A stretch of DNA of 64,000 nucleotides from contig JASAND010020851.1 in the NCBI GenBank assembly GCA_030248195.1, positions 35,797-99,796 of the forward strand, given 5' to 3'. A program made the position numbers and the translations under genes. This document shows, piece after piece, positions 709 through 63,976 of this stretch (position 1 is its first letter; each line of letters begins with the position of its first letter). This stretch comes from Trissonchulus latispiculum (Eukaryota > Nematoda > Enoplea > Enoplida > Ironidae). The notes under the pieces were generated by a model that saw nothing but the letters and a program-made list of their open reading frames with translations, made no database searches and had not been told where the DNA came from.

Positions 709-744
709 TCATAGGGGTCGCGGCAGCGACCCCTATAATATGAG
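709..744 (+). other. H1 5' terminal hairpin and 5' iteron
   Basis: Stem ATAGGGGTCGC (711-721) pairs with GCGACCCCTAT (726-736) over 11 bp, closing a GGCA loop. AATATGAG follows immediately at 737-744. Confidence 0.85.
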
Positions 745-1442
745 TGAAAATGGTCGAATGACCGTGTAAAACAAGGCTGCGCAGAAGTTGCGCAGGTTCC
801 TGCGCAGATCCTGCGCAGATTATGTGCGCAAAAAATTGTACGTGTCGAGTTTAGTATATTTGCCAAGTTTCATCCCCGTACCACTTTCCGTTAAAAAGTT
901 GTCCCAAAAATCGCTTACGAAAATTGTGTTTTTTCTTTTTTCCGGTTTCTCGCTTTTGATGTCTCATAAGGGGGTTTTGTAGCTTGAATAACTACAGATA
1001 GAAAAATTTTTGCCTATGAAACCCATATATATTCTTGTAGTACAAATCAAAAATAAGAAAATAAGCTAGTTTTTATGCCTCCCAGAGCCGGAAAAAATTT
1101 TTGGCTGGGGGCCAAAGTCGGCCAAAACGCTAAAATGGCCAAAAAGTATGCTTCAAAGGCGCCTTAATAAGTCAGATTGGGCTATATATGGGGTAATACT
1201 GACTATATGGTTAAACAGTACACATATCGGGGTCGTTCAAATGCTATATGATTTGCCGTCTCTGTGCGTAATTTTTCGGTACTGGCCGGCCAAGGTTGGT
1301 GAATTTTGGGTCGAACTTTGAACTTAATTTTTTCGCTTATTTTGCTACATGGGTGGCTCAAATTTTGCATACAAAGGTTTTTTGGGACGGAGAATCGATT
1401 CCCGCTATCAGTTTTGCTGCCCGAGTAGCCCAAGTTGCTGGG

Positions 1443-1807
1443 CTGGTTCCACTTGACCGTCTGAGGGGTCAGTTCGGTAACCACTTCCTGGAGGTCCATA
1501 GTAGGCTTTATATACTTTGCCTCTCCAAACTTTGTCTATAGGGGTTTTCTGGTGCGCCCAGCTCATTCCCGGTGTCCGTTTTGCCGTCTGACCCACCCAT
1601 CTTGCTGTGCTGGTTCCACTTTGCCGTCTGGAGGGTCCGGTCGGTACCGACTTCCGGGAACACCATATAGGACTGTACATAGCCTCTCAAAACATTGTCT
1701 ATAGGGGTTTTCTGGTGCGCCCAGCTCATTCCTGGCATCCGTTTTGCCGTCTGACCCACCGATCTTGCTGTGCTGGTTCCACTTTGCCATCTGGAGGGTC
1801 AGGTCGG
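1443..1807 (+). repeat. 163-bp minisatellite array in H1
   Basis: The phrase CTGGTTCCACTT recurs at 1443, 1610 and 1773, giving spacings of 167 and 163 bp. Each unit also contains TTGCCGTCTGACCC and GTTTTCTGGTGCGCCCAGC. The same unit in reverse orientation forms the array at 62765-63150. Open frames across it are by-products of the repeat. Confidence 0.85.
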
Positions 1808-2520
1808 TGGGAGGTCATGGGGTCAAAAATGAAATTTTCCAAAAGTGGTCAAATTTGGTATCAAATGAAAGCCCTAAGCGAGCTGAGCAACTTTTGTCAT
1901 AGAACTGCATGCTCAAAGTGGCTGTAGAGTGCTGTGGTGGGGTGGGGTGGGGACTTTGGCGATTTTGGGTCAAAAATGAAATTTTCAAAAGTGGTCGAAT
2001 TTGGTACCAAATGAAAGCCGTAAGCGAGCTGAGCAACTTTTGTCATAGAACTGCATGCTCAAAGTGGCTGTAGAGTGCTGTGGTGGGGTGGGGTCTTAGG
2101 TGATTTTGGGTCAAAACTGAAATTTTCCAAAAGTGGTCAAATTTGGTACCAAATGAAAGCCCTAAGTGAGCTGAGCAACTTTTGTCATAGAATTGCATGC
2201 TCAAAGTGGCTGTAGAGTGCTGTGATGGGGTGGGGTGGGAACTAAGGCGATTTTCGGTCAAAAATGAAATTTTTCAAAAGTGGTCTAATTTGGTACCAAA
2301 TGAAAACCGTAAGCGAGCTGAGCAACTTTTGTCATAGAATTGCATGCTCAAAGTGGCTGTAGAGTGCTGTCATGGGGTGGGGTGGGAACTTAAACGATTT
2401 TCGGTCAAAAATGATATTTTTCAAAAGTGGTCTAATTTGGTACCAAATGAAAGCCCTGAGCGAGCTGAGCAACATTTGTCATAGAACTGCATCCTCAAAG
2501 TGGTTGTGGAGTGTTGTGGT
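1808..2520 (+). repeat. 146-bp minisatellite array in H1
   Basis: Five units; CAAATGAAAG begins at 1862, 2008, 2150, 2297 and 2444 (spacings 146, 142, 147, 147). Each unit contains the palindrome-like TTTGGTACCAAA, the core AGCGAGCTGAGCAAC, and a GGGGTGGGGTGGG stretch. The same unit forms the nine-copy array at 61500-62760 on the opposite strand. Confidence 0.9.
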
Positions 2521-2592
2521 TGACTTGCTTGCTACTGTTGAAAGATATCTATACATACCTTCAGGAGCATACATATATAAAATAATAGAAAA

Positions 2593-2790
2593 CAAGAACA
2601 AAAAGTGCTCCTTCGTCGCATGTAAAATACATATGAGTCTTCGTAGGCAGGTTGTACATAAGCAAAAACTAGCCTGTAAAATACATATGAGTTCCGTAGG
2701 GAGGTTGTAAATTAAGGAAAACAAGTTGCAACCGCTTAACATATGAGCCTGTCCTACAACGAGGCTCATATTGGCGTCACAGTGCATTCC
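2593..2790 (-). repeat. Inverted extra copy of the Helitron 3' tail inside H1
   Basis: The minus strand reads one AATATGAG, three CTCATATG copies, then GGAGCACTTTTTGTTCTTG ending at 2593, followed by T. It is a nearly exact inverted copy of 3175-3358, so the two form long arms around about 380 bp. The same tail in direct orientation ends the element at 35212-36060. Confidence 0.85.
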
Positions 2791-3178
2791 ACATTAAAGC
2801 CTCATTAAAGAGCCTCAGCTTCATCCACATTACGGAAAAATGAATAGACGTTGTATATAGCCCAGAAGAAATGGATTGAAGTGAACTACGACTGCTCAAG
2901 CTGAACTGTACATGCAACCTGATGTTTCCTGAAACACTATGGCACACCTCTAATGCATTCTCGAAACGCTTTCACATTATACACACGCAGAATGCGTTCC
3001 CACTTGGCTGTGAGTCAGAGCGCCTCATGGCGTACCGTATTGAGCATATGCACACTATAATGACTGATCAACAAGCTATGTGAAGGATAATTTGTAATGA
3101 AAAGCTTTATGCAGTAAGTATATATTTATATAAAAGTAAAATATATATCTGCAAATTATTCGTATTATGACATACGCC

Positions 3179-3358
3179 AATATGAGCCTCGTTGTAGGAC
3201 AGGCTCATATGTTAAGCGGTTGCAACTTGTTTTCCTTAATTTACAACCTCCCTACGGAACTCATATGTATTTTACAGGCTAGTTTTTGCTTATGTACAAC
3301 CTGCCTACGAAGACTCATATGTATTTTACATGCGACGAAGGAGCACTTTTTGTTCTTG
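3179..3358 (+). other. H1 3' tail: iterons and CTTG terminus
   Basis: AATATGAG lies at 3179-3186 (direct), then CTCATATG at 3204, 3260 and 3314 (inverted), then GGAGCACTTTTTGTTCTTG to 3358. The next host base is T. Confidence 0.8.
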
Positions 3359-4065: not shown

Positions 4066-4278
4066 GTGGGTTTTAGTCCTCATTCGTCTTGGTTGGTGTA
4101 TACACTTATCATGAAGGTTTATAAATACATAACATATGCATCCCCATATACATACGCTTTGTGAGCTCAGATTGTACAAAAACTCATATCTACAAACGTT
4201 AAAATCTGTAGAAATGTTTGTGTACGTATATGTTTATTTATGTACATACATGTGCATTTATATATTTGTTTTGTTTAG

Positions 4279-5262: not shown

Positions 5263-5299
5263 TCAGGTAGTGCGCGTTAGCGCACTACCTAGAATAAGG
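5263..5299 (+). other. H6 5' terminal hairpin and 5' iteron
   Basis: Stem AGGTAGTGCGC (5265-5275) pairs perfectly with GCGCACTACCT (5280-5290) around a GTTA loop. GAATAAGG follows at 5292-5299. Confidence 0.85.
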
Positions 5300-5689
5300 A
5301 AATTAAAGGCGTTTGCGGCTTATTGGACACTATTTTTTTAATAAGTCATGGAGTAGTGGACCGATCCGGCTCAAACTTGCTGTGTGAAGAGCCTGTGGGC
5401 AGGGGTACGTGCTGTGAAAATTTCAGTCGGATCGGCCGGGTGGATCTCGAGATATGCAAATTCGGTACTTTGGCCGCTTGACAGTTCTCTCCACTTTTTT
5501 CCCACCCACCCTAGAGGTCGGGGGACAAAAATTTCTATAAAGTTTTGCTATTTTTGTGGATAGTATCCCCCGCAATTCAGTGCGAATTTTTCTTTTCGAC
5601 ATAGGTCTGTGTACTCCTAGGATTTTGCGATTTTTGCCCCCCCCCCCCGGAAAAAAACTATGTCCGAAAATTTATTAGCCGATCCCCAG

Positions 5690-6310
5690 AGAGCAAGGCT
5701 CAAAGCCAGGTACTCATATTGGCTATATAGCATTACCCCAACGTGAAGATCTCCGGGAAGCGGGATGGTACTGCTCGGTGCTCTGTGGCGCCCTGGCCAG
5801 GGGTCACTAGATAACGTGTAAATGCGGGGGTCTGGGCCTACGGAGTAGGCAGCCCTATACATAAGAGTTGCTGTGCTGAGGTTTCGTATTCGAATAGGAA
5901 CCCCTATATGGTGAATCTAAATGGCCCATTAGTTTTGCTCTAGCACCTATCCGTGGGGCTGGGGGGTACCCTGATGGAAGTGGACCCCAACCGTGTTGCA
6001 AGTGCAACTTTTGCCTCTTCTGTAGAAAGATCCGCTGCAGGTAGAGCTTTCATATTTGGCGTGGGGGGTGGGCTGCGGGAGGACTACAACGTAGGCTATA
6101 GTAGGTACCGGCCGGACCCCTGTGGCGCCCCTGGCCAGGGGTCCGGACCAGGGTCCGGGCCCAAAATGGCCCAAAATCGATTTTTCCAAAAGTGGCCAAG
6201 TTTGGTATCAAATGAAAGCCCTTGGTGAGGCGAACATTTTTTGTTATTGGAGGACCCCTCCAAGGTGGTCCCAGCGGCCTGTGGCGCCCTGACCAGGGTC
6301 CGGACCTTGT
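5690..6310 (+). repeat. Degenerate minisatellite inside H6
   Basis: The phrase CTGTGGCGCCC followed by TGGCCAGGG recurs at about 5780, 6119 and 6279 (the last as TGACCAGGG). The segment at about 6185-6235 contains AAAAGTGGCCAAGTTTGGTA, closely matching the 146-bp units in H1 and H5. Confidence 0.65.
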
Positions 6311-6461
6311 TTGTAACGATTGTTTGATATTCATTGCATTCAGTCACGCCGGCGACCATATTATAAACATTGCACCGTCACATTGTTCAGTACAGCCCCT
6401 TTTGCGAAATTACTTCATCATCATCATATCTGGGACCAAGCGGTGAGACCATATAGCCGGG

Positions 6462-6962
6462 CTAAAGGCGCCCGGTACCCCGGAGGAAGTCCAACACCCC
6501 GGGAGGGTCATACCACAGGACGGCCAGGCCTTGGGAGCAGTCGAGGTGGGTACGCCGAATTATCGATTTCCTGGGGCAGCTCAAGATCAAATGCTCGAGC
6601 GTTTCTTCTTCCTGTAGGCAGTCAGGGCAAAGGGGGGAGGGACAGCCAGCTGGATCAATAGTATGCCTGTATTGGGCTAGGAGGAGGGATTTACCAGTTC
6701 GCAGCTGTGAAAGTAGAGTTCGGTGGGCCTTGGGGATGGCCATTTCGCGGTTAGCTGGGACCGGCCCGCGGTCCCCAAATAATATCCTGGATCTGTCGTG
6801 GCTCAGTCCAGTATGCCATGCCGACGTCGTTTCCCTCCTCAGAACCGCAGTGGCTGTTGGGAGATCGATTGGGACCAGGTCCTGCACCATTCTGCTACCA
6901 TTTCTGGCCAGCCTGCCGGCTTTCTCGTTACCTCTCATGCCGCAGTGGCTAGGGACCCACAT
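6462..6962 (-). pseudogene. LINE fragment: end of RNase H plus C-terminal zinc knuckle
   Basis: The frame begins with WVPSHCGMRGNEKAGRLAR, the conserved last motif of LINE-encoded RNase H (the catalytic His region). It is followed about 100 residues later by a Cys/His cluster C-X4-C-X2-C-X11-H-X5-C, starting at CPSPLCPDC and ending HLILSCP. The reading frame differs from the preceding fragment at 7146-7985, so at least one frameshift separates them. Confidence 0.8.
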
Positions 6963-7145
6963 TATCTGGACCTTTATCTCAGCCTGAGCGAACAGCTCCA
7001 GCTGCTGCCAAAGTCTCTGCTCCAGGTCAGTGGCCGGGAGGCGAAGTCCATTGGAGAGGCGTTCAACTAGGGACAGTGAGTCAGTGTAGATCCGGATCAG
7101 ACTGCAGTCAGCAGTGATGCAATTCCTTTGGAGCCATCTGAGCCC

Positions 7146-7985
7146 TTAGTAGCTGGAGCACACTTTTCCAGATGAAAAACCCAAATGGTTCTGTCTGCCT
7201 CTTCGGTTGTCGATGATGAGCACCCGGCTTCCGCCTTTGCTAGTTCCAGACTCCGCTGAACCGTCCGTCCAGATGTCCAGATCGGCTCTGGGCAGCCTTG
7301 AGATAGCTTCTGCGCACATGTTTCTTCTTGTATCCGGCGGCAATGATTTCTGGCAGTTCTTCGCTAACGTGGAGTCTGTCTCCACCACCGGTCTGAGTTC
7401 CCAAGGGGGAGTTGGCGGTAGCAGGCAGAGAGGCTGTCGCACGCACTGTTGGAGGCAGGTTTCATTGACGGTTTTACTGACTTCGGTTCTCCAGTTTGGT
7501 TGGCTTTTGAGGGTTCCAAGTCTGACCCCCGGCTGTTCAGCTGCAGCACAGCACCTCAGATTGCTGGGCGGCAGTCGTTGGCTTTTTTCGTAAGCCTTGG
7601 CGGATAGAAACTGGACACGGGATCTCAGCGGCATTACTCCAGCTTCCATCTGGAGTGCCTCCACAGGAGATGAGTTGTAGCAGCCAGTTATGATCCTGCA
7701 AGCCCGATTTTGGACTTTCTCTGCCGTGTACAGGTGGGTTGGAGCTGCGATGGGCCCCCAGACACCAGCACAGTATTCCAATGCAGATCTGATGAAAGTG
7801 ATGTAGACTGACCTGAGGTATTCCTTGGAAAGGCCCCAGTTCTTCCCAGCCAGAGCAGACAGGATCTTGGTTCTAGCCATTGATTTTGACTTCAGTTGCG
7901 CGACATGGGGTCCAAAGTTGAGCAGCCGATCGAATGTGACTCCCAGGAAGGTGACAGTTCTTGCAAGGGATAGGGTCATTGCCAT
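7146..7985 (-). pseudogene. LINE fragment: reverse transcriptase thumb region and start of RNase H
   Basis: It begins with the FLGVTFDRLLNFGPHV motif that follows the LINE RT palm, continues through the typical YIRSALEYCAGVWGP-like segment, and reaches DIWTDGSAESG, the first Asp motif of RNase H. It overlaps the RT fragment at 7873-8268 in another frame, so a frameshift lies near 7985. Confidence 0.85.
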
Positions 7986-8268
7986 ATCGCTGATTCAGCT
8001 TCCGGTTGGCTTCGGCGTTGTGGGTGGTGAAGATCATGCTCTCACACTTGCCTACGTTCACGTTGATGTGCCATTTCTGGGACCACTGGAGAAGTGAGTT
8101 GAGAGCTGACTGTAGATTGGACTCGGCAGTTGCTGTGCTGGTGTCCTGCGCCCACAGGGCCAAGTCATCAGCAAACAGGAAGGCTTGTATTCTATTGGGC
8201 ATGCCTTCCAGAATATCGTCGATGAAGATTAGGAAGAGCAGTGGGGACAGGCAGCTTCCTTGGGGCAC
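7873..8268 (-). pseudogene. LINE fragment: reverse transcriptase palm with FADD
   Basis: PQGSCLSPLLFLIFIDDI and then FLFADDLALWAQ are RT motifs around the catalytic Asp pair. The upstream part of RT, the endonuclease and ORF1 are missing because the element is truncated at about 8341. After about residue 85 the frame leaves the conserved sequence, which continues in the frame of 7146-7985. Confidence 0.85.
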
Positions 8269-8486
8269 GCCAAGCTGAAGCGGTTTCAGCTTGGTTTTGG
8301 AGGAGTTGATCTTAACACAAGCCCTCCGGTCTGCCAGGAACTGCGAAATTACTTTATCATCTCGACTGATAAGTTATCTCATAAGTCTTTTCATACCAAT
8401 GAATTATACCCACACAAGTTATCTCATAAGCCTTCCCATACCATTATACTCACGCCATAGCGATTGAGTATCTGAGCACTTCACGC

Positions 8487-8760
8487 GAATAGGGTGGATG
8501 GCGAGAGGCGCCTATTCTGCCCCAGACGCTGGTTTCAATCATTTTAGGCGCTGACTAGATTCCCTATTCTGTACCGAAAAGCTGGTTTCAATAATTTTAA
8601 GCGCTGACTAGATTCCCTATTCTGTATCAAAAGGCTGGTTTCAACCATTTTAAGCGCTGACTAAAAACCTGACTCCACACAGCTATTGGCATTTTTCCGC
8701 TTTAGCCATGTTCCCTATTCTCCCCTTTAACAATGACCGTTAGGGCATTTTCGCTACTAG
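8487..8760 (+). other. H6 3' tail: five iterons and CTAG terminus
   Basis: GAATAGGG lies at 8487-8494 (direct), then inverted CCTATTCT or CCCTATTCT at about 8511, 8562, 8615 and 8713. The 8562 and 8615 copies sit in a 53-bp repeat (CTGGTTTCA...GCGCTGACTAGATT). A weak hairpin (CCC...TAAC / GTTAGGG) precedes CATTTTCGCTACTAG. Confidence 0.75.
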
Positions 8761-14864: not shown

Positions 14865-14865
14865 C

Positions 14866-18067: not shown

Positions 18068-18978
18068 TGTAAAGATTTGGCCCCAGTGACTGGATAAATG
18101 GCGACCAAAACCCTTTACAGGGGCGCTGTGCGCTAAAGGCTGGATACGCAACCTGGACAGGGAGATAGTTCCAGGTCAGCCTCGACAAGCCTCGCCAATA
18201 GGACACGCCAGATAATACGTAAAACCTAAAGCTCACTCCCACTACGTTACCCCTGACCTAAGCCCTATGTACCCTACTTACCGAACTAAATAAATCTAGA
18301 ACTTAGCTAAAATACAATAGGCCAAGTGGCCGTTGATTAAATTTACTGTATATAAAGGAGGGGGGTGTACCAGATAATAAATAAAAAAATCCACTCGATA
18401 CTTACAGAGTTATAGTCCAGGAATAGAGAGAAAAATAGGCATACATAGTATATAATAATAAATCCAGAATAATACTGAGCCCCGATACTTAATAGCTTTG
18501 GGGTCCCCCCTGTCCAGCCTATCACCAGACTGGGAGGCCTTTACTTTTCTAACCCGAGTTCAAAGGCGCTAAGGGACCCCCCAAAGAAATTGCAGTAAAT
18601 AAAATGCGACCGTAATTTTAGTAGTGAAAGGAAACACTCGAACCGACTAGACAAGGCGAAAGAATCAACGTAAGACTGACTAACTGGGCGGAAAGTCATC
18701 AAACGAAACGCGCAATCATGCGATCACACGTGACTTCCGCCCAGCCAATGAGAAGCGAACGAAGTTTCGAAACAGAAATTTCCAGACAAACTAGAATATG
18801 CATGCTCTATCTTTGCAGACAGTAATAGAATTAACATGATATAAGTGAGATCAGAAATTATAGGGGCAAGTTTTTAGAAAAACTGGAGCGTACAAAACGT
18901 TTACTAATATTGAAATGGAGAATCTTTTAAAATAATAAAATAACTATGCACAGTAGGGCATCCCCGCCCTACTGTACA
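18068..18978 (-). repeat. 3' LTR of the Gypsy element
   Basis: 911 bp; on the minus strand it starts TGTACAGTAGGG and ends CTTTACA (TG...CA). The tip holds an inverted repeat CAGTAGGGC/GCCCTACTG. It aligns along its length with 31069-31958. Confidence 0.92.
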
Positions 18979-21902
18979 TGTCCCCAGGGCTTACCGCCCG
19001 AGCTCCTGCGAGGGAACTGACGGAAAACCCTAAATTTAGATCAGAAAGGGAATTTAGGTAAAATAGAAAATAGGATACGGCCATACATAAGTAAAAACCC
19101 AGTAGAAAAAATGCTAAGAAAAATGCTAATCAAAACTATAATAGTAGAAACTTGAACAGTAAAGAAAATTTTAGCGAGGCCATATAGGTATGGAACCATC
19201 CCCGGATCCAACTAGAAGGCGCATGGACTAAAGGTCAACCACGGGTGGAGCGCCGGGGGACCGTCAGCTATGTAATCAGCTGGAATTTGAGCGAAAAGTT
19301 TTATGAGTAAAAGGAACCGGATAGGGTGTCATTGCGCGGCATAGCGAGATCACCCTGAAACAGGGGAGCGCTCGCCTCACGACATCGAATCACCTCGATG
19401 GTGGGCGCAGACTCACGAAGAGACTACGATGCCGTTACAGTGCTCATGACGACGCAACTATCAGATGGCAGGGAGGCATATGCCGCCGACCCCTCCAGTT
19501 TGGTAAGCGTAATTTTAGGGGCAGGGTTCGTTGGGACAACTACCATTTGCGCCCGCAAAAGTAGAATTTTAAGCGAAGGTGTGGTGACCATGCTAAAGGG
19601 AATTAATAGGGACCTTTTTGTCCATCCCCGGACGCCTCACTATACTAGTAACAAGAAAAAGTTTTTAGCCACTAAGAAAATTTTGGTTAATTTTTGGTTA
19701 GACTTTTGGTTAGCTTTTTAAGAATTTTGGCAAATACTCAAGATACAAAACAACATTCAAGCACTGAACAAGATACATATTATATGCGTATACATAAGAC
19801 ACATGAAATTATTAAATATATTAGGGCTAGAATTTAGTTAGAAAACCAGTAGTTATAGAAATAAGAAATTTGATCTGTTTAAGAAGGTTAGATATTAAAA
19901 TAAGAAATCAGAGTTTTTGGTAATAAATTATTAAAACAATTATTTTATGACTAAAATGTTGACTAAAACTGCACAATAATTAAAGTTTCATACATAATAT
20001 AGACATCTAGCGTCTCTACCGCACACAACTTATTCTTCGATGTCTTCTTTCTTCTGGGGTAGGTAAAAAGTCACTACTCAGGAGATAAATATCAGTCATA
20101 TAATGGCAGTCATAATAGGAATGGCAGGATGGAGGGATAGTCATAATTGAGGTATATAAGTCCAAGTTGAGGATCATAATTGAGAATCAGGTAAAGTATA
20201 GTCAAAATATGGCAAGTCATAGTAGAGTAAGAATGGATCATAAATGTAGTCATAGAAGTAGAATAGTCATGGATCATAAGATCAGGAGGGAAGGATAATA
20301 GTATGTTGGGGACCGGTAGGTACCAACCAATGATTTGGGACAACGTCCGCCGTTGTTTCTTCATTGAGACACCGTTTGGGTTGTAGTCACCGCCGATGTT
20401 GAGGCTATGAGGTTCATCCGTCGAAGATTTTTACCATAGGAAGGAGCCAGCTGGTCAACAAAACATCGCCGTTTCGGACCTTATCCTACCCTTCACCGGG
20501 CAGGCCCAACCCATCACCGGGTGGGAGGGGAAAGTACTAGGCTTCGCCATACGTAGTACTTATTGAAGGTAAGCCTGGTCTTATCCAGGCATAGCCGGGA
20601 TTTAGACTTCTCTGAATACGCCGAATTATAGTGATGACACACCGGCACATGGATGGTAAATTCTGCCTGGTTATTCTATTCCGGCAATATAATTGCCATT
20701 TCTATTGGTGTCGAGGCTAAACTCCGCCCGCACTTACGCATTTCGCAGCGCCGACTATAGTAAATAGAGAACATGGGCCGTCCATCTACTGCGACCACTA
20801 TTTATTGCCGGATCCCGCAATAAATCCACATGCTCTGTGGGCCGTGGCTATTGCAGTCTCTATAGGCAGACTGACTTAGTTAAAGCAGAGGACTAACTCC
20901 GTCCACAGGTACTAGCTACCAATGGTACCTTAAGGGTAAAGTCAAGTATGTCTCCGGAACCTCGACTAATCCATCTAGTCCCTACTTGTACTAGTCAGTA
21001 TAGGTGCAACGTACCGCACCACTTTCTGTTGATAGCCTCAACAGTGCTAGGATACATGTTCTTATAAGCTCTATCCAGGGAGTTCATACGAGAGCTATAC
21101 ATAGATGAAAATACATTACAGTGCTCCAACAGATGCAGAGCAGCCTTGGTCATCGGCAGGCGCTCCCCGCAATTACTGCCGAACAGGGAGGGTCAGCATA
21201 AACCGCCTCCTCAGGTGAAATAGGGTGTATCCCCACACCCACTTGAGTACCAATGATATGTGTGAGAAAAGAGAAAAAAAACAAGGACTGCCAAACGGCA
21301 TAATAGCTGTAAGCATGGTTGATGTGTGATAGGTACGAATAAAACTACTACGTGTGGTACGAAGACCGGTGCAGGAACTTGGAGGTGCATGTGTAGAACC
21401 TAACTAAGGGTAAAAAACCTAACTAAGAAACCTAGCTAAGAGTGCATGAGAGCGGTAGGAGGAGGAGAGAGTAACTTACATCCCTCCTGTAATAAGAAGA
21501 AACCCAAGGTAGGATCCTTTTGTAAAGAAAGGTAAATTAAGTCTAAAGGTTTACAACCAAACGAGATAGGAAACCCCCATAGGTAAATTTTAGAAGTAAG
21601 TTTAAATAAGATAATGGTCTATTATGAGGAAAGAAAATTATAATAAGGGAAAGAGTAAAATTTGAAATGGATTTACAACGAAACACCCCTTAAAAAGTAA
21701 TTAAAAGTCTAAAAGGATCCTAGAAAATTTAACCCACCCAAGGAGAAAAAACCAAAGGGAACCATGCTTACAGCCGACAGAAAAAAAACCTAGCTAAAGG
21801 GCCCAAGAAAAGTTAGACACGCGTGGCCACGCGATTAATATGAATACAAGTACAAGCAAGTAGTGGTACTTGAGCAGAATATTCACCCGGAGGCATAACA
21901 GA
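18979..21902 (-). other. 3' non-coding region of the Gypsy element
   Basis: About 2.9 kb between the pol stop and the 3' LTR. I find no long conserved frame and no envelope signature. A classical purine-rich tract directly before the LTR is not obvious; the minus strand reads CCCTGGGGACA there. Tandem ATCATGA-like motifs occur near 20100-20290. Confidence 0.6.
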
Positions 21903-27761: not shown

Positions 27762-27787
27762 GGGTTGGGAGGGACACGAGTCAGGCT

Positions 27788-27833
27788 CTACTGCCCGTGC
27801 CCCTGCTGGGCGTTTCCCTGGTCCGGGAAACCC
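27788..27833 (-). promoter_or_regulatory. gag-pol overlap with -1 frameshift heptamer
   Basis: Within the overlap the minus strand has GGGAAAC (27818 to 27812), read in the gag frame as G GGA AAC; slipping back one base gives the pol frame. A second candidate, G GGT TTC, occurs at 27833 to 27827. Downstream, GCCC...GGGC segments could form a stem. X XXY YYZ heptamers of this type are known retroviral slippery sites. Confidence 0.75.
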
Positions 27834-35211: not shown

Positions 35212-36060
35212 TCATAGGGGTCGCGGTAGCGACCCCTATAATATGAGTGAAAATGGTCGAATGACCGTGTAAAACAAGGCTGCGCAGAAGCTGCGCAGAT
35301 CCTGCGCAGATTATGTGCGCAAAAAATTGTACGTGTCGAGTTTAGTATATTGGCCAAGTTTCATCCCCGTACCACTTTCCGTTAAAAAGTTGTCCTAAAA
35401 ATCGCTTACGAGAGTGATGTTTTTTTCCGGTTTCTCGCTTTTCATGTCTCATAAGGGGGTTTTGTAGCTTGAATAACTACAGATAGAAAAATTTTTGCCT
35501 ATGAAACCCATATATATTCTTGTAGTACAAATCAAAAATAAGAAAATAAGCTAGTTTTTATGCCTCCCAGGGCCGGAAAAAATTTTTGGCTGGGGGTCAA
35601 AGTCGGCCAAAACGCTAAAATGGCCAAAAAGTATGCTTCAAAGGCGCCTTAATAAGTCAGATTGGGCTATATATGGGGCAGTACTGACTATATGGTTAAA
35701 CAGTACACATATCGGGGTCGTTCAAATGCTATATGATTTTCCGTCTTCGTGCGTAATTTTTCGGTACTGGCCGGCCAAAGTTGGTGAATTTTGGGTCGAA
35801 CTTTGAACTTAATTTTTCACTTATTTTGCTACATGGGTGGTTCTTTAATGAGGCTTTAATGTGGAATGCACTGTGACGCCAATATGAGCCTCGTTGTAGG
35901 ACAGGCTCATATGTTAAGCGGTTGCAACTTGTTTTCCTTAATTTACAACCTCCCTACGGAACTCATATGTATTTTACAGGCTAGTTTTTGCTTATGTACA
36001 ACCTGCCTACGAAGACTCATATGTATTTTACATGCGACGAAGGAGCACTTTTTGTTCTTG
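35212..36060 (+). mobile_element. Helitron-like element H2 (AATATGAG type), short form
   Basis: 849 bp, host A at 35211 and host T at 36061. The 5' hairpin (35214-35239, loop GGTA) is followed by AATATGAG (35240). The tail has AATATGAG at 35881, then CTCATATG at 35906, 35962 and 36016, then GGAGCACTTTTTGTTCTTG. The first about 625 bp match H1 closely, but no tandem arrays are present, so this is a natural deletion form containing only the ends. Confidence 0.85.
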
Positions 36061-40432: not shown

Positions 40433-42416
40433 ATATACACATCTGGCTGGAATAAAAGAACGCATACAGATGATTCCTTTCTTATGATCTACCATTTCTG
40501 TTGGTTGATATATACTTTTCCACTTGTTTTTCATCCTGGGTCGTGGTTTTTCATTGTTAGCCTCATTAAAAAATTATGATACTAATACCTTGGCTCATTT
40601 TTAGCTTGTTGGTTATATTACGTATATCAATTTTTAAAATTTTGGCGTCGCGGAAAGTTTGTTTACAGTTTTGTTGTAAATTCATATTTTTTCAAATTCC
40701 GATCATTTTTGTGATCTCTTGCCCAATTTTCCTTAATCTTTGTTGTCCTTGGAAGGATTCGTAGAGCTTGTTTCTTAGCCTACTGTTTCAATATATATTT
40801 CTTTTCTGTTTTATTTCGCTGGTTGCTTTAATTTGGCTGTACTTGTTGTGTACCTTTGTTTGAGTGCTCCATATCCCTTGGTTTAGTTCATATCCATAAG
40901 AGTGAATGACTTTGGTTGGACTTTGGTCCTTTCATTCTTTCTTTCGTTCTTTCTTTCCTGGTCTCCAGGGAGGCACTTTCTCAGGATCTTCATTTCTTCT
41001 CCGAAACTTTTCTCTCTCGCTCCCACCACCAAAGCCCAAGTCCGGGAAGGGAACCCACTGACTGGCCGGACAGAATGATTTACGGTCGACTGCCTGAAAC
41101 TTTGGAAAAAAGGGGAAAGCATACCATGGACGGTTAAGGTTAAGGTTAAGAGCTAAACCTAAAGGGGCGCCCTAAATGTCCCATTGTTGGATCTGTTGCT
41201 TTTGCTACCCACCCTCTGTGTGCTGTAATAGCTTACGTGCTGTCTAGTATGTGTATATATGTAGATAGACTTTGGAGGTCCTCTTTGTGTTAAACTCTTC
41301 TCTTGACGTTTGAGACTGAAATTGAGGGGGCAAAAGTTGTTTGTTCGGAACAGAGCGGATATGTAGTCTCCGTTTCCGTTTATTATTATGTACAACATAA
41401 ATTTCCTCAAAAATGTCTGTCGTATTTATCGCCACATATATATTGTTGTATTAAATTGCATTAAATCACTACTGAACCAGGACAATTTACGCATTTATTG
41501 CCCAACGCTTGATGTTTCTACTTTCTAGTTAGGTTTGACTTTTCTGAAAGATTTTTGAAGTGGGCTTCCTGTTCTCTATCTTTTCTTCTTCTTCTTCTTA
41601 ATAAGGACAGAAGTTTATATGCTAACTTGCTTCAGGTTTAACGTCACAAGTTGGCTGCTATGTATACCGGTCTTTGCTTGTGTACTCAGTGTTTTTCTTG
41701 CACTTGCTGGACTTACATTTCGCAACTTGCTTTTTTGCTGGATAAATTTTCGGTTTTTCTGAGCGGGCTCAGCAAGATTTTCGCTACATATGTGACTGGC
41801 TACATACGTAACAGCTTCACCTTAAATTAGTCTTTATCCGTCTAATTGTATTACAGAATCTTTATATTATCTGTGTGTTAATAAATAATTCTAATTAATT
41901 AATTAATGCATATGTAGTGTACTTACAGTGTATCCTATTGTTTTTCGTCTGCTAATGTCTCCGTCCCTTCCGTATATAATGTAGGTATATACCGGTCATC
42001 TCATAGTACATTTTCGCATAATGCAACCGGAGCTCAAGATATCTTTACAAGCTTACAATTTACGTGATTGACTAGGCGTCTTTTCAAAGGTTTTATATAC
42101 TTGATTTTGAATAATTTTGTGATTTTAAAAAGTAGAAAGATATTTGAAAGTCTTGTCTTTTTGATGGTTGCTAAATATTTTTGGACATTTTTAGTAATCG
42201 TTTCCCCGTCCCTAAAGGAAAAGTAAAGGTCAACCCCAGGAGATATCTCCGTCCTGCCACAGGACATGGGGTGCCGGTGCTCATCCCCGGATATACAGCC
42301 GTAGAGCCAGGAGTGTCACCTCAAATGATGACTGCATCCGTGTTTAAGGGGGGGCCGGCCCTTCTGCACAGACTCCTTCCCCGTCCCTCCCCAATCTTTA
42401 GCATTATATTAAGTGC
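40433..42416 (+). other. Intron, no gene recognised
   Basis: Mostly AT-rich with pyrimidine stretches. 42200-42350 is GC-richer and briefly open but lacks convincing splice sites in a usable phase. Confidence 0.4.
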
Positions 42417-53880: not shown

Positions 53881-53891
53881 CTGAACTTGTA

Positions 53892-54968
53892 TATTATGTA
53901 GGGGCGCGATAGCGCCCCTACATAATATGGGTATAAGGGCGTCTGCGCGGCCCTCTGGAGACCGTGTTGGCCTGGTGCCAGCTAATTAGAGGTCCGGCGG
54001 TGGTAAGAAGGTTACCATCGTAAACAACTCGAGTAGTACTACAAGTACCACCATACTTTTGGTTCGAATTCGAAACTTCGAAGTTTTGCACTAGGCGATA
54101 GTTACCGTGCGTTTGTTTTTTCTCGGTGAATAACGCTTATTGGAAATGCATTTTACGGCTAAGTGTTGGATATATTATATTACGGCATATATAGTAAATC
54201 GACTACGCTCGTTTCAATGGCCATATCGCCGAAACCGACGGAAGTGACCACTGGTCACTACAGCCTACGGGGCCTCTTGACCACTGGTCAAACGGCCTAA
54301 AACTGCGTTTTTCGGCGTTTTGGTCGGGGGCATATATAGTAAATCGACTACGCTCGTTTCAATGGGCATATCGCCGAGACCGACGGAAGTGACCACTGGT
54401 CACTTCATCCTATGGGGCCTATTGACCACTGGTCAAACGGCCTAAAACTGCGTTTTTCGGCGGGCGCATATATAGTAAATCGACTACGCTCGTTTCAATG
54501 GGCATATCGCCAAAACCGGCTGAATTGACCACTGGTCAAACGGCCTAAAACTGCGTTTTTCGGCGTTTTGATCGGGGTCATATATAGTAAATCGACTACG
54601 CTCGTTTCAATGGGCATATTGCGAAATTGAGGGAAGTGACCTGTGGTCACTGCGGTCTATGGGGCCTATTGACCAGTGGTCAAACCCCTTAAAACAGCGT
54701 TTTGCGGCGTTTTGGTTGGTGACATATATAGTAAATCCACTACGCTCGTTTCAATGGGCATATTGCCGAAATCGATGGAGTGACCAGTGGTCACTACGGT
54801 CTATGGGGCCTATTGACCAGTGGTCAAACCCCTTAAAACAGCGTTTTTCGGCGTTTTGTTGGGGGCATATATTGTAAATCGACTACGCTCGTTTAGCATG
54901 GCACTGTTCAAGCTCCTTGTATCCATTACCGCATTGCTGGAAAGGGATCCTTTAAAATGACAGAAGGA
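53892..54968 (+). mobile_element. Helitron-like 5' part H3 (AATATGGG type) with minisatellite
   Basis: It opens with the longest 5' hairpin of the set: 16-bp arms (53892-53907 and 53912-53927) around GATA, overlapping AATATGGG at 53924-53931. The start is TT instead of TC, so the exact terminus is uncertain. An array follows at 54186-54895. The next segment is a 3' tail of matching type but in the opposite orientation (54969-55145), so a complete element is not present as one unit. Confidence 0.7.
54186..54895 (+). repeat. Minisatellite array of about 144 bp in H3
   Basis: CATATATAGTAAAT (or close variant) begins at 54186, 54331, 54467, 54579, 54723 and 54866. Most units hold two palindromes, GTGACCACTGGTCAC and TTGACCASTGGTCAA. 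The same unit occurs in H4. Confidence 0.88.
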
Positions 54969-55145
54969 CAAGAAATAAAAATGCTCCTCTGGAGCATGAA
55001 AAAGTAATATGGGTGATGGTGAGATTGCAAAATCAAGAGAGGACTAGTCTTTAAAATGCTTAATATGGGGCTAGGTTAAAAAATAGAAGAGGACTAGGTT
55101 GTTAGCGAATTAATATGGGCACAGCTTCGCCGAACAACCCATATT
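54969..55145 (-). other. Helitron 3' tail of AATATGGG type, inverted relative to H3
   Basis: The minus strand reads AATATGGG (55145 to 55138), then CCCATATT at 55112, 55062 and 55006, a hairpin ATGCTCC-AGA-GGAGCAT (54997 to 54981), and TTTTATTTCTTG ending at 54969, next to T. The hairpin about 12 nt from the terminus is the classical Helitron 3' feature. Confidence 0.8.
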
Positions 55146-55295: not shown

Positions 55296-56640
55296 TGAAT
55301 ACAAGAATACAAGAATACAAGAATTTTATTTCCAAAGTTATAAGCAACGGAAAAGACAACGCAGATTCACAATTTATTCAAGTATATAATATATATGTAC
55401 CAGAGATGCAGACAGAAATACAAATGCATACATATATTTTACTTATAAACACGTAGATACTTGCACAGTATGCTTTTACAGCTTTTCAATCCTTCTTTAA
55501 AATCAAGGACATTTTTGCTAAGAATAATGCGTTCAGGTAATGCATTCCAGGGACCTATTACTCGACAGGCAAAGGAAAATTTTAATAAATCAGTAGAAAA
55601 CTTTGGGCATTTTAGTTTAAGCAAATGACCCCGACTTTCGTAAGGTATGGAAGCAAAGACAAAAAGCTCAGAAGGAGCGATAACAGTATATCCGAAAATT
55701 ATCTTATATAATAATACCAAATCCACAAACATGCGTTCGAGCTCTAAAGTGGTGAGACCAAGCAGTTCACACTGAGTTTTATAATTGTACTGGTTTAAAT
55801 AAATAAAAGAAGAACAGAAAGTAATTTGCACTTTTTCGATTTCCTTTATATCTTTTATAAGCCATGGATTCCAAATTTCAGAAGCGTAAAACAATATCGG
55901 TAGAACGTAGGCTTTGTACAATTTAACTCTCACCGCAGTATCATCAGATACAAAATTGCGAAAAATTAGAGATAAAACCGATCTTGCTTTGTTACACATT
56001 TTAGCGATATGGGTTGAGAATTTTAGATTATTTACCATCCAAACTCCAAGATCCGTGTACCCTTCAACGCCCACGAGCACTTCACTTGCATAACTGTAAT
56101 TAAATTTCGGATTATTACGACCGACATGCAAAATAACAGTTTTTGGGATCGATACGGTTAACTGCCAATCAGACACCCATTTCTCGAAACTATTTAGCAA
56201 ATTCTGTAGAACGTTTTGTCGATCAATACCAGAGACAAACATTTTTATATCATCCGCATAAGCACAACAACAATCATTATTGTTAAGGAAAAGAAACTCA
56301 TTAATAAAAACCAAAAATAATGTCGGACCACATACTGAACCTTGAGGGACACCGCTAACTACAGTACTCCAGTTTGAAAAAGATTCATTTAAACGAACTC
56401 TTTGTCGCCTTCCAGAGACAAAAGCAGATATAAGGTTTAAAAATTTCCCAGAAAACCCATAAGACTCAAGTCTATGTAGTAGTTTTGGAATTGAGAGAGA
56501 GTTGAAAGCTTTTTTCAGATCAATGTATACAATATCTAGAAGCAATTTAGAATCCATAGAGAGCTTGGCTTGAACCCGGTTCCTTGAAGTTAGTCGATCG
56601 AAGTTTTTTCTCCAAAACCCTGGAATTATCATTGGGCAAT
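55296..56640 (-). mobile_element. 5'-truncated LINE of CR1/L2-group type
   Basis: One 397-codon RT frame is followed by a short 3' UTR ending in three copies of the 8-mer ATTCTTGT (55301-55324 on +, ACAAGAAT), as in CR1/L2-group elements, which end in short repeats. The 5' part is lost. Confidence 0.8.
55439..56632 (-). CDS. Reverse transcriptase C-terminal part of a LINE
   Basis: 397 codons without a stop. Motifs are IVYIDLKKAFNSL, SGVPQGSVCGPTLFLVFINE, the catalytic CAYADDIKMF, and the C-terminal FACRVIGPWNALPERII motif typical of CR1/L2/Rex-like elements. The endonuclease and the first RT motifs are missing, and the first ATG is unlikely to be the original start. A recent but dead-on-arrival copy is likely. 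RNase H is absent. Confidence 0.85.
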   Translation of the reverse strand: MIIPGFWRKNFDRLTSRNRVQAKLSMDSKLLLDIVYIDLKKAFNSLSIPKLLHRLESYGFSGKFLNLISAFVSGRRQRVRLNESFSNWSTVVSGVPQGSVCGPTLFLVFINEFLFLNNNDCCCAYADDIKMFVSGIDRQNVLQNLLNSFEKWVSDWQLTVSIPKTVILHVGRNNPKFNYSYASEVLVGVEGYTDLGVWMVNNLKFSTHIAKMCNKARSVLSLIFRNFVSDDTAVRVKLYKAYVLPILFYASEIWNPWLIKDIKEIEKVQITFCSSFIYLNQYNYKTQCELLGLTTLELERMFVDLVLLYKIIFGYTVIAPSELFVFASIPYESRGHLLKLKCPKFSTDLLKFSFACRVIGPWNALPERIILSKNVLDFKEGLKSCKSILCKYLRVYK

Positions 56641-56707
56641 GGGCATCATTTATATATCATTTGAAAACTCTTGAAGAGTTGAACAGCTTTTGTAATAGAA
56701 TCGATAT

Positions 56708-59315: not shown

Positions 59316-59384
<69 letters not shown>

Positions 59385-59534: not shown

Positions 59535-61336
59535 TCACGAGGGTGCGCGGAGCGCCCCTCATAATATGAGCTATAAAGGCACTTTGCGGATTAGGGAAAC
59601 TGTTAATTAGCCATAACTAATTAACGGTAGGGAGTTGAGAGCTAAAGTTTACATTTTTGAAATCTCCAGGCCAAGAGCTTTCGAATGATACCAAACTTGT
59701 CCGGAAAAAATGAACTTTGAAAAAATCGACTTTTTGATACAAGTTTAAAAGTGGGGTTTTTTTTCTCTGTATCGACCACTTTTATAGGGCGATTTTTGCG
59801 CACACCGATTTTTCAAACGGCCCATAGGAAAAATTTTTCTATACTAATTTCTGATTATCTAGGTTATGGTCCAGATCAAGTTTATGTTTGATTTCCGAAT
59901 TTCGCTATGGGTCGATTTTTACAGATGGTCAAAAATGGAAAAATCGACGTTTGGACTATTTTTTGGCCATTTGGTGGTGCGCATATATAGCAAATCGGGG
60001 TCGCTGAACACGATGAGCATACTGCCGACACCGCCCGAAGTGACCACTGGTCGGCATGGGCCCGTGGCACCTCGCCCAGGGTCAAAGTTAGGGTCAAAGT
60101 TTGGAAAAGTCACTAAAACAACGTTTTTCGGGGTTTTGGTTGGGGGCATATATAGTAAATCGACTACGCTCCTTTCAATGAGCATATTTTTAGAACCGAC
60201 GGAAGTGACCACTGGTCACTATGGCCTAGGTGGCCTATTGACCAGTGGTCAAACCCCCTGCGTTTTTCGGGATTTTGGTTGGGGGCATATATAGTAAATC
60301 GTCTACGCTCGTTTCAATGAGCATATTTTCAGAACCGACGGAAGTGACCACTGGTCACTATGGTCTAGGTGGCCTATTGACCAGTGGTCAAACCCCATAA
60401 AACAGCGTTTTTTTGGGTTTTGGTTGGGGCTTATATAGTAAATTGTCTACGCTCGTTTCAATGAGCATATTTTCATAACCGACGGAAGTGACCACTGGTC
60501 ACTATGGTCTAGGTGGCCTATTGACCAGTGGTCAAACCCCCTAAAACAGTGTTTTTCGGGGTTTTGGTTGGGGCATATAGTAAATTGTCTACGCTCGTTT
60601 CAATGAGCATATTTTCAGACCCGACAGAAGTAACCACTGGTCACTATGGTCTAGGTGGCCTATTGACCAGTGGTCAAACCCCCGAAGACAGTGGTCATTG
60701 TTTGGAATAGAGAATCTTCTGGGAGTAATTAATTGCAGCTAATAAACATCAGCTGTGTATTTTATTGTATAAGTGCTGTGTACAGTAAGCCGGTACTGAA
60801 GACTTGAAGAATACCGGTTTACTGGAGCTTTATGCATTTGTATCTAGTTTGCAGTGTTTGTCTATGATTTAGAAAACTGGTATATACCAAATGTATATGC
60901 CACTTAATTCAACTTTAAAGGGGAGAACTTTAGCTACTTAAAGTGTTCACATATATACCTTAAATACGGTGTTTGAGCTAGTGAAATTAGATTCAGACAG
61001 GATACCTATAACCAAACATTATATGAAGCTAATGACATTACGCAAGACGGTGAGGATTTTTCAGACTTGGGATTGGGAATAAAAGTAAAGAGTCTGTAGG
61101 CAAGATGGTAAGAGGTCGTCGTGATGTCAAGCCGTTGAAACCACGGCAGCGAGCGTCAATATGAGCCCAAGAGAAACGTGGCGGCTCATATTAGCCAGTT
61201 ACAGCTTGTCCTTTACCGATTTAGATGCTGGCTCATATTAGACGTTTTAAATCTTGTCCTTGACATATTTAAATGTTGACCATCATAGCTCATATTGCAT
61301 TTTACATGCGACTGCAAGGAGCATTTTTCCTACTTG
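59535..61336 (+). mobile_element. Helitron-like element H4 (AATATGAG type) with 144-bp array
   Basis: 1802 bp, host A at 59534 and T at 61337. The 5' hairpin GAGGGTGCGC-GGA-GCGCCCCTC (one bulged T) is followed by AATATGAG at 59563. The tail has AATATGAG at 61158, CTCATATT at 61185, 61232 and 61289, then GGAGCATTTTTCCTACTTG. The array is the H3 type, although the iterons are the H1 type. No coding frame. Confidence 0.85.
59992..60690 (+). repeat. Minisatellite array of about 144 bp in H4
   Basis: CATATATAG-type starts at 59992, 60147, 60286, 60430 and 60574. Units contain GTGACCACTGGTCAC and TTGACCAGTGGTCAA, as in H3. Confidence 0.88.
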
Positions 61337-61499
61337 TATATGTGTATGTATATATATATACAAGTAACAAAAATGCTCCGCACAAAAGGGGATAATATGT
61401 GTGTTGGGCCTATGTCTGTCGTTTAAATTCCGGTTGAGAAGGCAAGTATATAAATCCGACACAGCAAGTTTGGGTGGGTGGTTCTATGGCGAAAGTTGT

Positions 61500-62760
61500 T
61501 CAGTTCGATGCGGGCCTTCATTTGACTCGAAATTTGACCAGTTTTGAAAATTTGAAAATTTTAATTTTTGACCCAAAATCGCCTAAGTCCCCACCCCACC
61601 TTACCACAGGCCTCTACAGCCACTTTAGGTACGCACTTCTATGACAAAAGTTGCTCAGTTCGATGCGGGCTTTCATTTGGTACCAAATTTGACCACTTTT
61701 GAAAATTTTAATTTTTGACCCAAAATCGCCTAAGTCCCCACCCCACCCCACCGCAGCACTCTACAGCCACTTTGAGCATGCAATTCTATGACAAAAGTTG
61801 CTCAGCTCACTTAGGGCTTTCATTTGGTACCAAATTTTACCACTTTTGAAATATTTCATTTTTGACCGAAAATCGCCAAAGACCCCACCCCACCCCACCA
61901 CAGGCCTCTACAGCCACTTTAGGTACGCACTTCTATGACAAAAGTTGCTCAGTTCGATGCGGGCTTTCATTTGGTACCAAATTTGACCACTTTTGGAAAA
62001 TTTTAGTTTTGACCCAAAATCACCTAAGACCCCACCCCACCCCACCACAGCACTCTACAACCACTTTGAGCATGCAGTTCTATGACAAAAGTTGCTCAGT
62101 TCGATGCGGGCTTTCATTTGGTACCAAATTTGACCACTTTTGGAAAATTTTAGTTTTGACCCAAAATCACCTAAGTCCCCACCCCACCCCACCACAGCAC
62201 TCTACAACCACTTTGAGCATGCAGTTCTATGACAAAAGTTGCTCAGTTCGATGCGGGCTTTCATTTGGTACCAAATTTGACCACTTTTGAAAATTTTTAT
62301 TTTTGACCCAAAATCGCCTAAGTCCCCAACCCACCCCACCACAGCCCTCTACAGCCACTTTAGGTACGCACTTCTATGACAAAAGTTGCTCAGTTCGATG
62401 CGGGCTTTCATTTGGTACCAAATTTGACCACTTTTGCAAATTTTTATTTTTGACCCAAAATCGCCTAAGTCCCCACCCCACCCCACCACAGCACTCTACA
62501 GCCACTTTGGGTACGCAGTTCTATGACAAAAGTTGCTCAGCTCACTTAGAGCTTTCATTTGATACCAAATTTGACCACTTTTGAAAAATTTTATTTTTGA
62601 CCCAAAATAGCCTAAGTCCCCACCCCACCCCATCACAGCACTCTACAGCCACTTTGAGCATGCAGTTCTATGACAAAAGTTGCTCAGCTCACTTAGAGCT
62701 TTCGTTTGATACCAAATTTGACCACTTTTGAAAGATTTTAATTTCGACTACTTGACCCCC
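61500..62760 (-). repeat. 147-bp minisatellite array in H5
   Basis: TTTCATTTGG-type starts at 61671, 61818, 61965, 62112, 62259, 62406, 62553 and 62700, each exactly 147 bp apart; one more diverged unit starts near 61516. At least two unit variants differ around CGATGCGGGC versus CACTTAGAGC. Confidence 0.93.
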
Positions 62761-62764
62761 TCCA

Positions 62765-63150
62765 CCCGACTGACCCTCCCGACGGCAAAGTGGAACCAGC
62801 CCAGCAAAATAGGTGCGTCGGACGGCAAAACGGATACCGGGAATGAGCTGGGCGCACCAGAAAACCCCTATGGACAAAGTTTTGAGACGCCAAGTAGAGC
62901 CTAGTATGGACCTCCAGGAAGCGGTTGCCGACATGACCCTCCAGACGGCAAAGTGGAACCAGTACAGCAAGATAGATGAGTCCCACGGCAAAAAGGACAC
63001 CGGGAATGAGCTGGGCGCACCAGAAAACCCGTATAGACAAAGTTTTGAGAGGCCAGGTAAAGCCTACTATGGACCTCCAGGAAGCGGTTTCCGACTTGAC
63101 CCTCCCGACGGCAAAGTGGAACCAGCCCAGCAAGATGGGTGGGTCTGACG
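62765..63150 (-). repeat. 163-bp minisatellite array in H5
   Basis: TGGAACCAG starts at 62791, 62954 and 63117 (exactly 163 bp). Same unit as 1443-1807 in H1. Confidence 0.88.
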
Positions 63151-63976
63151 GTAAAACTGACTGCGGGAATCGATTCTCCGTGCCAGAAAACCATTGTATG
63201 GAAGATTTGAGCTTTCAAAGTTAAATAGATAGCGAGAAATTTCGATTTTTCATTTTTAGAATTTTCGCCATTTTTGACGGACCACTGTGGTCGCTAGGGA
63301 AGTGATAGAGAAACGCAACCTGGACCGTTAGTTAGTTCAATATATGTAATTTCTGAATATAAGAAGAAATCAGCTCCAGCTCGTAACGTTCGACCTGAGC
63401 GACGACCACAAAAATGGTCACTTTTCGCTATGAGCCGACTTTGCGGCGCCACTGCGGCGCTGTGGCGCAGCTGCGGCGCAAAAAAAGTTGTGATTCTTAA
63501 ATTCTTTAGAGGGTACTACTAGACCCCATAGCCCTTTAGGTTGGCCCACCGCTGCAGATCACGTGAAAGCGGCGAACATTATGTACAATACAACCATCAA
63601 ATAGGAGAAACCGGAAAAAAAAACATCGCCGCCATAACCGGTCCGGGGCGCAACTTTTTAACGGTAAGTGATACGGGGCTGAAACTTCACAGACATACTA
63701 AACTCGATGTGCTCTACAATTTGCGCATGAAATCTGCGCAGGATCTGCGCAGGATTTTGCGCAGCTTCTGCGCAGCTTATTTTACACTGTCTCCAGCCAC
63801 TTTTCACACATATTATAGGGGTCGCTGCCGCGACCCCTATGATATATATATATATATCCTACGTATACATGGAATTTAGTCTTAAATTACGTCTATATAT
63901 ATGTTTTTTACCGAATCGGTTTCCGTTTGTTGTTGGGCTCGCTTTCCTCTCTCTCTCTCTCTCTCTCTCCCTGCAG

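What the first reader, a model, noticed from the sequence alone, without database searches (positions are those of the whole stretch)
709..63842. Helitron-like elements carry an 8-nt motif that differs between elements but matches at the two ends of each one
Seen: right after the 5' hairpin there is AATATGAG (737, 35240, 59563), AATATGTG (minus, 63814), AATATGGG (53924) or GAATAAGG (5292). Near the 3' end the matching motif recurs: AATATGAG in H1, H2 and H4; AATATGTG in H5; AATATGGG in the 54969-55145 tail; GAATAGGG in H6. The usual order is one direct then three or four inverted copies. Known: Helitrons have a TC start, A|T insertion, a 3' hairpin and CTRR; matched iterons at both ends are not part of the usual description as I know it. 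Inference: an element-specific protein reads these sites to pair the two ends, as Rep proteins do with iterons, and the code diverged with its protein.
Basis: partly seen in the sequence, partly recalled or inferred. Interest (0 to 1): 0.9.

Follow-up and report, generated by a model that had tools for sequence, protein, structure and literature searches.

The report
Jumping genes with matching end tags

Summary
Six non-autonomous Helitron-like elements in the window begin with a hairpin followed within two bases by an 8-nt motif that recurs, mainly inverted, near the 3' end. Genome-wide patterns show three large tail types that differ at one letter, AATATG[A/T/G]G; in the first 100 listed places of each, the letter was A in 100, G in 100 and T in 99 (3,811, 2,635 and 2,875 tails in all). 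Of the listed 5' ends that could be paired by coordinates with a same-strand tail, 53 of 55 agree (53 of 57 with G tails counted). Ancestry alone does not explain it: H1's left end is 84% identical to the T-coded H5 left end, its right end is related to the A-coded H4 right end, and it carries A at both. Matched subterminal repeats are already known in Helentrons/HINE and Helitron2. New here are the one-letter code, the extra 3' copies, the place just inside the 5' hairpin, and a second, inverted 3' tail inside many A and G elements. No autonomous partner with these ends was found, so reading by an element-specific protein is untested.

The parts
709..3358 (+). Element H1 (A code): TC start, central tandem repeats, internal inverted tail, terminal tail ending CTTG|T
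711..736 (+). H1 5' terminal hairpin (11-bp stem, 4-nt loop)
737..744 (+). H1 5' motif AATATGAG
2593..2772 (-). H1 internal inverted copy of the 3' tail (100% complementary over 186 nt to the terminal tail)
   Evidence: pair I14
3179..3358 (+). H1 terminal 3' tail: AATATGAG direct 3179-3186; CTCATATG inverted at 3204, 3260, 3314; end TTCTTG at 3358
35212..36060 (+). Element H2 (A code): hairpin 35214-35239, motif 35240-35247, tail 35881-36060 (direct 35881; inverted 35906, 35962, 36016)
59535..61336 (+). Element H4 (A code): imperfect hairpin 59539-59560, motif 59563-59570, tail 61158-61336 (direct 61158; inverted CTCATATT 61185, 61232, 61289)
61361..63842 (-). Element H5 (T code): hairpin 63815-63840, motif 63807-63814, single 3' copy 61394-61401, 3' end at 61361
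5263..8760 (+). Element H6: hairpin 5265-5290, 5' motif GAATAAGG 5292-5299, tail GAATAGGG direct 8487, inverted 8510 (one letter changed), 8562, 8615, 8713; end CTAG at 8760; holds open frames that look like a retroelement
53896..53931 (+). 5' end of a G-coded element: hairpin 53896-53923, motif AATATGGG 53924-53931
54969..55145 (-). G-coded 3' tail, inverted relative to the 53896 hairpin: end 54969; motif copies 55006, 55062, 55112 and 55138
1346..2572 (+). Central tandem repeats of H1 (spacings 163-167 and 142-147 bp)
   Evidence: families D6, D11
61551..63192 (-). Central tandem repeats of H5 (147 and 163 bp)
   Evidence: families D1, D16

Best explanation
These are non-autonomous Helitron-like rolling-circle elements. 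[quoted passage not shown] Most likely a Rep/helicase made elsewhere in the genome binds the motif at both ends, nicks at the start and stops at the 3' end that carries the same code, as iterons set the specificity of rolling-circle Rep proteins (recalled). The single variable letter (A, T or G at position 7 in an AATATG-G frame) would then keep families from using each other's ends. Shown: the motif, its layout, its near-fixation per tail type in the listings and its match between ends. Inferred: binding by a protein, its role in pairing or termination, and the separation of families.
For: Same letter at both ends in 53 of 55 coordinate pairs among the 98 listed 5' ends with a clear letter (19 A-A, 34 T-T, 1 A-T, 1 T-A). 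Same letter in 15 of the 17 pairs read as DNA (10 T, 5 A; the others are H6 and the interrupted L065); nine of the T pairs and L069 lie in the same contigs as the list, so they are not independent of it. Letter constant in 299 of 300 listed tails; 5 T-type tails in the genome carry A. The four tail copies of H4 (A) and of the G tail at 54969 differ at position 7 in 4 of 4 and agree at the other seven positions in 28 of 28 when read off in order (sequences), while the spacers agree in 70 of 143 aligned positions. Left ends of H1 and H5 are 84% identical over 197 nt but carry A and T; H1's right end matches H4's (83% over 52 nt) and gave no match to H5's. A shared core with one variable letter fits a protein contact better than pure pairing of strands (inference).
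Against: Copies of a family share ancestry, so 53 of 55 is not 55 independent events; the independent switches that I can point to are few (H1 against H5; H4 against the G tail). If the G tails are counted, two more listed 5' ends (C129 with A, C260 with T) have a G tail as nearest same-strand tail, giving 53 of 57; with tails of either orientation within 6 kb it is 58 of 63. C76 (A, T tail) and C312 (T, A tail) were not read. The tail patterns fix the other seven letters, so they test position 7 only. No autonomous element with these ends was found. H6 does not match exactly. The T family does with a single 3' copy.
Confidence: 0.55

Rival explanations
1. The ends find each other by base pairing of single strands, not through a protein that reads the motif: the 5' copy can pair with any inverted 3' copy on the same strand, which helps to end the rolling circle, as Bao and Jurka proposed for the asymmetric terminal inverted repeats of Helitron2.
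For: In the pairs read, an inverted copy is present at the 3' end each time, and the T family has only that one. The direct and first inverted copy in the tail can fold into a stem in H1 (z -4.1) and H4 (z -2.5), less clearly in H6 (z -1.1). The pairing model and compensatory changes are in print for Helitron2 (PMC3627910, passages).
Against: Pairing would let all eight positions drift together, yet the AATATG-G frame is shared by families with about half of their spacer changed. In Helitron2 the 5' repeat is part of the 5' hairpin; here it lies beside it.
Confidence: 0.28
2. The motif is a fossil of family ancestry: each family inherited both ends from one founder and the match has no function of its own.
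For: Each tail type is nearly uniform in the listed rows (299 of 300), and the association is mostly between families.
Against: H1 shares its left end with the T family and its right end with an A family, but the letter agrees within H1. Four to five copies per element stay alike while the DNA between them diverges.
Confidence: 0.12
3. A question of kinship that does not exclude the mechanisms above: these are HINEs (non-autonomous Helentrons) and the motif is their subterminal inverted repeat.
For: The genome holds many Rep copies, several with a T-run plus palindrome upstream, as in Helentrons; two protein relatives of one Rep frame carry an endonuclease domain (PF03372); central tandem repeats of about 150 bp and a last 3' copy that ends 33-40 nt before the 3' end are HINE-like (PMC4067079 passages).
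Against: The 5' motif lies about 28 nt from the 5' end, not 2-4; it is not palindromic; starts are TC in five of six and ends CTTG or CTAG followed by T.
Confidence: 0.3

Closest known systems
Helentron / HINE / DINE-1
   Same: Non-coding, central tandem repeats, family-defining subterminal repeats at both ends, the 3' one 38-60 nt from the end (PMC4067079, PMC7492417; passages)
   Different: There one 11-15 nt repeat per end, 2-4 nt from the 5' terminus, and TT insertion; here 8 nt, beside a 5' terminal hairpin, up to five 3' copies, T before the start and T after the end
Helitron2 with asymmetric terminal inverted repeats (ATIR)
   Same: [quoted passage not shown] passages)
   Different: In Helitron2 the 5' repeat is an arm of the 5' hairpin; here I saw no copy of the hairpin arms in the tails (by eye) and the motif is separate
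Canonical Helitron (Helraiser, Helibat; lepidopteran Hel-2)
   Same: TC start in five of six, CTAG end in H6, 3' hairpin in the G tail; Hel-2 has a 5' inverted repeat and subterminal inverted repeats (PMC4344730, passages)
   Different: Helitrons are described as not holding similar sequences in inverted configuration at their ends (PMC5876387, passages); here A, T and G tails end in CTTG, and H1 and H4 show no clear hairpin near the end
Iterons of rolling-circle replicons such as geminiviruses (recalled, not looked up)
   Same: Short repeats next to an origin hairpin, specific to the replicon, in direct and inverted copies
   Different: There one origin; here the same motif marks two ends of a transposon, and no Rep is known for it

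Membership tests
Canonical Helitron (Helitron1) | 5' TC | tested here: met
   H1, H2, H4, H5, H6 start TC; the G element at 53896 starts ATG, an exception
Canonical Helitron (Helitron1) | 3' CTRR | tested here: not met
   A, T and G tails read end CTTG; H6 ends CTAG
Canonical Helitron (Helitron1) | Insertion between A and T without target duplication | tested here: inconclusive
   T before the starting AT in 36 of 36 and T after the 3' end in 43 of 43 junctions (L009 repeats the window's H1; internal tails included). L018 fits TA|T, L013 fits it against L084 but not L082, L014 by eye; L027 reads T|T, L036 fits neither. The output was cut, so further matches were not seen
Canonical Helitron (Helitron1) | Hairpin 10-12 nt from the 3' end | tested here: inconclusive
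   Present in the G tail by eye; no better than shuffles for H1 and H4
Helitron2 | 5' terminal hairpin | tested here: met
   imperfect in H4
Helitron2 | 5' repeat is part of the hairpin and recurs upstream of the 3' hairpin (ATIR) | tested here: not met
   The motif lies outside the stem; hairpin arms not seen in the tails, by eye
Helentron / HINE | 11-15 nt subterminal inverted repeats 2-4 nt from the 5' end | tested here: not met
   8-nt motif about 28 nt from the TC start
Helentron / HINE | Insertion in TT | tested here: inconclusive
   L027 alone reads T|T
Any Helitron-like superfamily | Mobilised by a Rep/helicase with the same ends | tested here: inconclusive
   147 Helitron_like_N matches listed in the genome; 23 neighbourhoods read in part, none with these ends in place

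The most novel reading that the evidence does not exclude
One genome holds several Helitron-like families whose ends are kept apart by a one-letter address code, A, T or G in a fixed frame, written once at the start and up to four times at the stop. Start and stop must agree for the rolling circle to end properly, and new families arise when ends are exchanged and the code is brought into line.
Probability: 0.4. Interest if true: 0.8.

Novelty: new variant of a known kind. Interest (0 to 1): 0.58.

Why it matters
How a rolling-circle transposase recognises its own 3' end, and so how Helitrons avoid or allow capture of flanking DNA, is not well understood. A natural series of high-copy families that differ at one letter, in one genome, would let end recognition and cross-mobilisation be tested directly with small swaps.

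Tried and rejected
Autonomous partner: of 147 listed Rep matches (150 of 157 candidates scored), 23 neighbourhoods were read in part: 8 loci with 1.5 kb flanks, two 7-10 kb stretches, DNA upstream of 16 matches, six of them among the 8, pieces of 3 more, and further upstream of 3. None carried the hairpin and motif in place before a Rep gene. Only two were read on the 3' side, and none from end to end. A hairpin followed by AATATGAA in L052 looked promising but lies inside a longer conserved repeat region and was dropped. The shared sequence of two Rep copies ended just after a frame that looks by eye like a ubiquitin hydrolase, with no tail seen. A degraded H4-type 5' end beside one Rep (L043) lies in the opposite orientation.

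C448, a T-type tail with an A code 67 bp after an A-type tail, looked like a code switch; 5 such tails exist in the genome by exact pattern, so it is more likely a stray mutation next to an insertion.

A second candidate code in L037 (GAATATTA) turned out to be a local inverted repeat.

I first took the elements for T|T insertions because of L027; other flanks do not agree, so the insertion site is left open.

Protein side: one homology search with a Rep frame gave two hits at 28-33% identity among 7,989 scored candidates. Comparison with solved structures gave Helraiser for one frame and nothing for another.

Paper searches. The only paper holding both 'helitron' and 'iteron' concerns yam geminiviral sequences (listing only). 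I make no wider claim about print.
Full report
What was checked. The motif positions in the finding are in the sequence. The 5' end of H1, H2, H5 and H6 is a perfect hairpin of 11 bp with a loop of 4, that of the G element one of 12 bp, and that of H4 an imperfect one. The motif starts 0 to 2 bases after the stem. Four of the five 5' ends folded as DNA give z-scores from -4.9 to -6.1; the fifth (H4) was cut short by my coordinates.

Layout of the tails. In H1, H2 and H4 the last 180 nt hold one direct copy, an inverted copy 17 to 19 nt on, and two more inverted copies 47 to 57 nt apart; the last copy ends 37 to 40 nt before the 3' end. The G tail at 54969-55145 has the same layout. In H1 and H2 the inverted copies differ from the direct one by one letter. 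H6 has one direct and four inverted copies, one with a changed letter. H5 has a single inverted copy that starts 22 nt before the GGAGCA block. The tails of A and G elements are related to each other (83% over 52 nt for H1-H4, 75% over 59 nt for H4-G); the H5 tail gave no match to them and shares by eye only the terminal block.

Genome-wide counts. The window lies in an unnamed 734-Mb genome. Exact patterns count 4,358 copies of the H1/H5 hairpin, 5,007 with a looser pattern that spans the motif, 347 H4-type 5' ends, 2,875 T-type tails, 3,811 H1-type A tails and 2,635 G tails; each reversed control pattern gave 0. Tails are not elements: many A and G elements have two. The H4-type A tail was not counted. 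Only the first 100 places of a search are listed. In these, the letter at position 7 was A in 100 of 100 A tails, G in 100 of 100 G tails and T in 99 of 100 T tails; the patterns fix the other seven letters, so only position 7 is tested. By an exact pattern 5 T-type tails in the genome carry A. In the 100 listed H1/H5-type 5' ends, where all eight letters were free, 96 read AATATGAG or AATATGTG (my count); by letter at position 7 there are 59 T, 39 A and 2 unclear. In the 100 listed H4-type 5' ends, 99 have A at position 7; the other, C4607, looks like a chance match.

Pairing. I matched the 100 listed 5' ends with the listed A and T tails up to contig 405 (74 and 67) by coordinates: same strand, downstream within 6 kb, no other listed 5' end between. 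Of 98 5' ends with a clear letter, 55 have such a tail: 19 A-A, 34 T-T, 1 A-T (C76), 1 T-A (C312); 43 have none listed. Within 3.5 kb it is 50 of 52; with tails of either orientation within 6 kb it is 58 of 63. Fisher's exact test on the 55 gives 1.4e-12, but the copies are related, so this measures linkage and not independent events. Against the G tails, 7 of the 98 have a same-strand G tail within 6 kb; five of these have their own T tail nearer, while C129 (A) and C260 (T) do not, so with G tails counted the match is 53 of 57. In DNA read directly, 17 of 62 matches to the 5' end patterns have a tail in reach (some of the 62 are the second strand of a palindrome; many loci end too soon): 10 T-T, 5 A-A (H1, H2, L069, H4, L076), H6 with GAATAAGG against GAATAGGG, and L065, whose 5' motif is interrupted after the hairpin. 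Most of these T pairs and L069 are also in the list.

Beyond ancestry. Compared end by end, H1's left end is 84% identical to H5's over 197 nt and gave no match to H4's at E 0.01, while H1's right end is 83% identical to H4's over 52 nt and gave no match to H5's. H1 carries A at both ends and H5 carries T at both. So ends have been exchanged between families, and the code agrees within the element all the same. The A and G tails point the same way: spacers agree in 70 of 143 aligned positions, yet when the four motif copies are read in order all four differ at position 7 and agree at the other seven. The program aligned a copy out of register, so its own count for the constant positions is 23 of 28.

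An unexpected feature. Many A and G elements carry a second copy of the tail in inverted orientation inside the terminal one. In the listings, 26 of 38 minus-strand A tails and 33 of 52 minus-strand G tails have a plus-strand partner within 2.5 kb to the right, 24 of the 26 at 508-707 bp and 30 of the 33 at 613-793 bp; the opposite order was not seen in either list, and T tails show no such pair. In H1 the two copies are identical over 186 nt. The 54969 tail is such an inverted copy or the end of a minus-strand element.

Ends and insertion site. In 36 of 36 5' junctions the base before the starting AT is T, and in 43 of 43 3' junctions the next base is T (the AT is fixed by my pattern, L009 repeats the window's H1, and the 3' set includes internal tails). 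Comparison with related unoccupied DNA fits TA|T for L018, for L013 against one of two relatives, and for L014 by eye; L027 reads T|T and L036 fits neither. The output was cut, so this is not a full tally. I call the elements Helitron-like and do not file them as canonical Helitrons, Helitron2 or Helentrons, since each has at least one defining feature that is not met here.

Autonomous partner. The genome search listed 147 matches to Helitron_like_N. The 23 neighbourhoods read in part do not carry the hairpin and motif in the expected place. Several have a run of T and a palindrome, as in Helentrons, and two large Rep families have upstream tandem repeats of 155 to 161 bp, one of them 82% similar to the H5 repeats over 66 nt. 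This hints at a partner but does not name one.

What is known. I saw passages found by term search, not whole papers. HINE and DINE-1 have subterminal inverted repeats that define families, and central tandem repeats (PMC4067079, PMC7492417). Helitron2 has a 5' hairpin and asymmetric terminal inverted repeats, with a pairing model (PMC3627910, PMC5148889). Lepidopteran Hel-2 has subterminal inverted repeats with TC and CTAG ends (PMC4344730). Helitrons are described elsewhere as lacking similar sequences in inverted configuration at their ends (PMC5876387). The present case differs by the single-letter code in three large tail types, the multiple 3' copies and the place of the motif next to the hairpin.

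Verdict.

Noticed in passing
window 2593-2772 and 3179-3358; listings: Many A- and G-coded elements carry a second, inverted 3' tail mostly 500-800 bp inside the terminal one; in the listings not in the opposite order and not in the T family.
   Followed up: partly
window 18068-31866: Two open frames of 859 and 1976 aa on the minus strand, flanked by near-identical repeats 13 kb apart: by eye an LTR retrotransposon. Described only.
   Followed up: no
window 6462-7994 (minus) and 55439-56656 (minus): Open frames that look by eye like reverse transcriptase and RNase H parts of non-LTR elements; the first pair lies inside element H6.
   Followed up: no
window 39326-39649 and 40117-40440: Inverted repeat of 324 nt, 96% complementary, 467 nt apart.
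   Followed up: no
L041, L047, L048, L049, L056: Rep genes with a T-rich stretch and a GC-rich palindrome upstream, much like the 5' end described for Helentrons.
   Followed up: partly
L072 2208-2390, L073 2627-2800, and C364: T-coded elements lie next to or between G-coded tails, as if inserted in G elements.
   Followed up: partly
L089 (C448:3640-3920): T-type tail with the A code 67 bp downstream of an A-type tail.
   Followed up: yes
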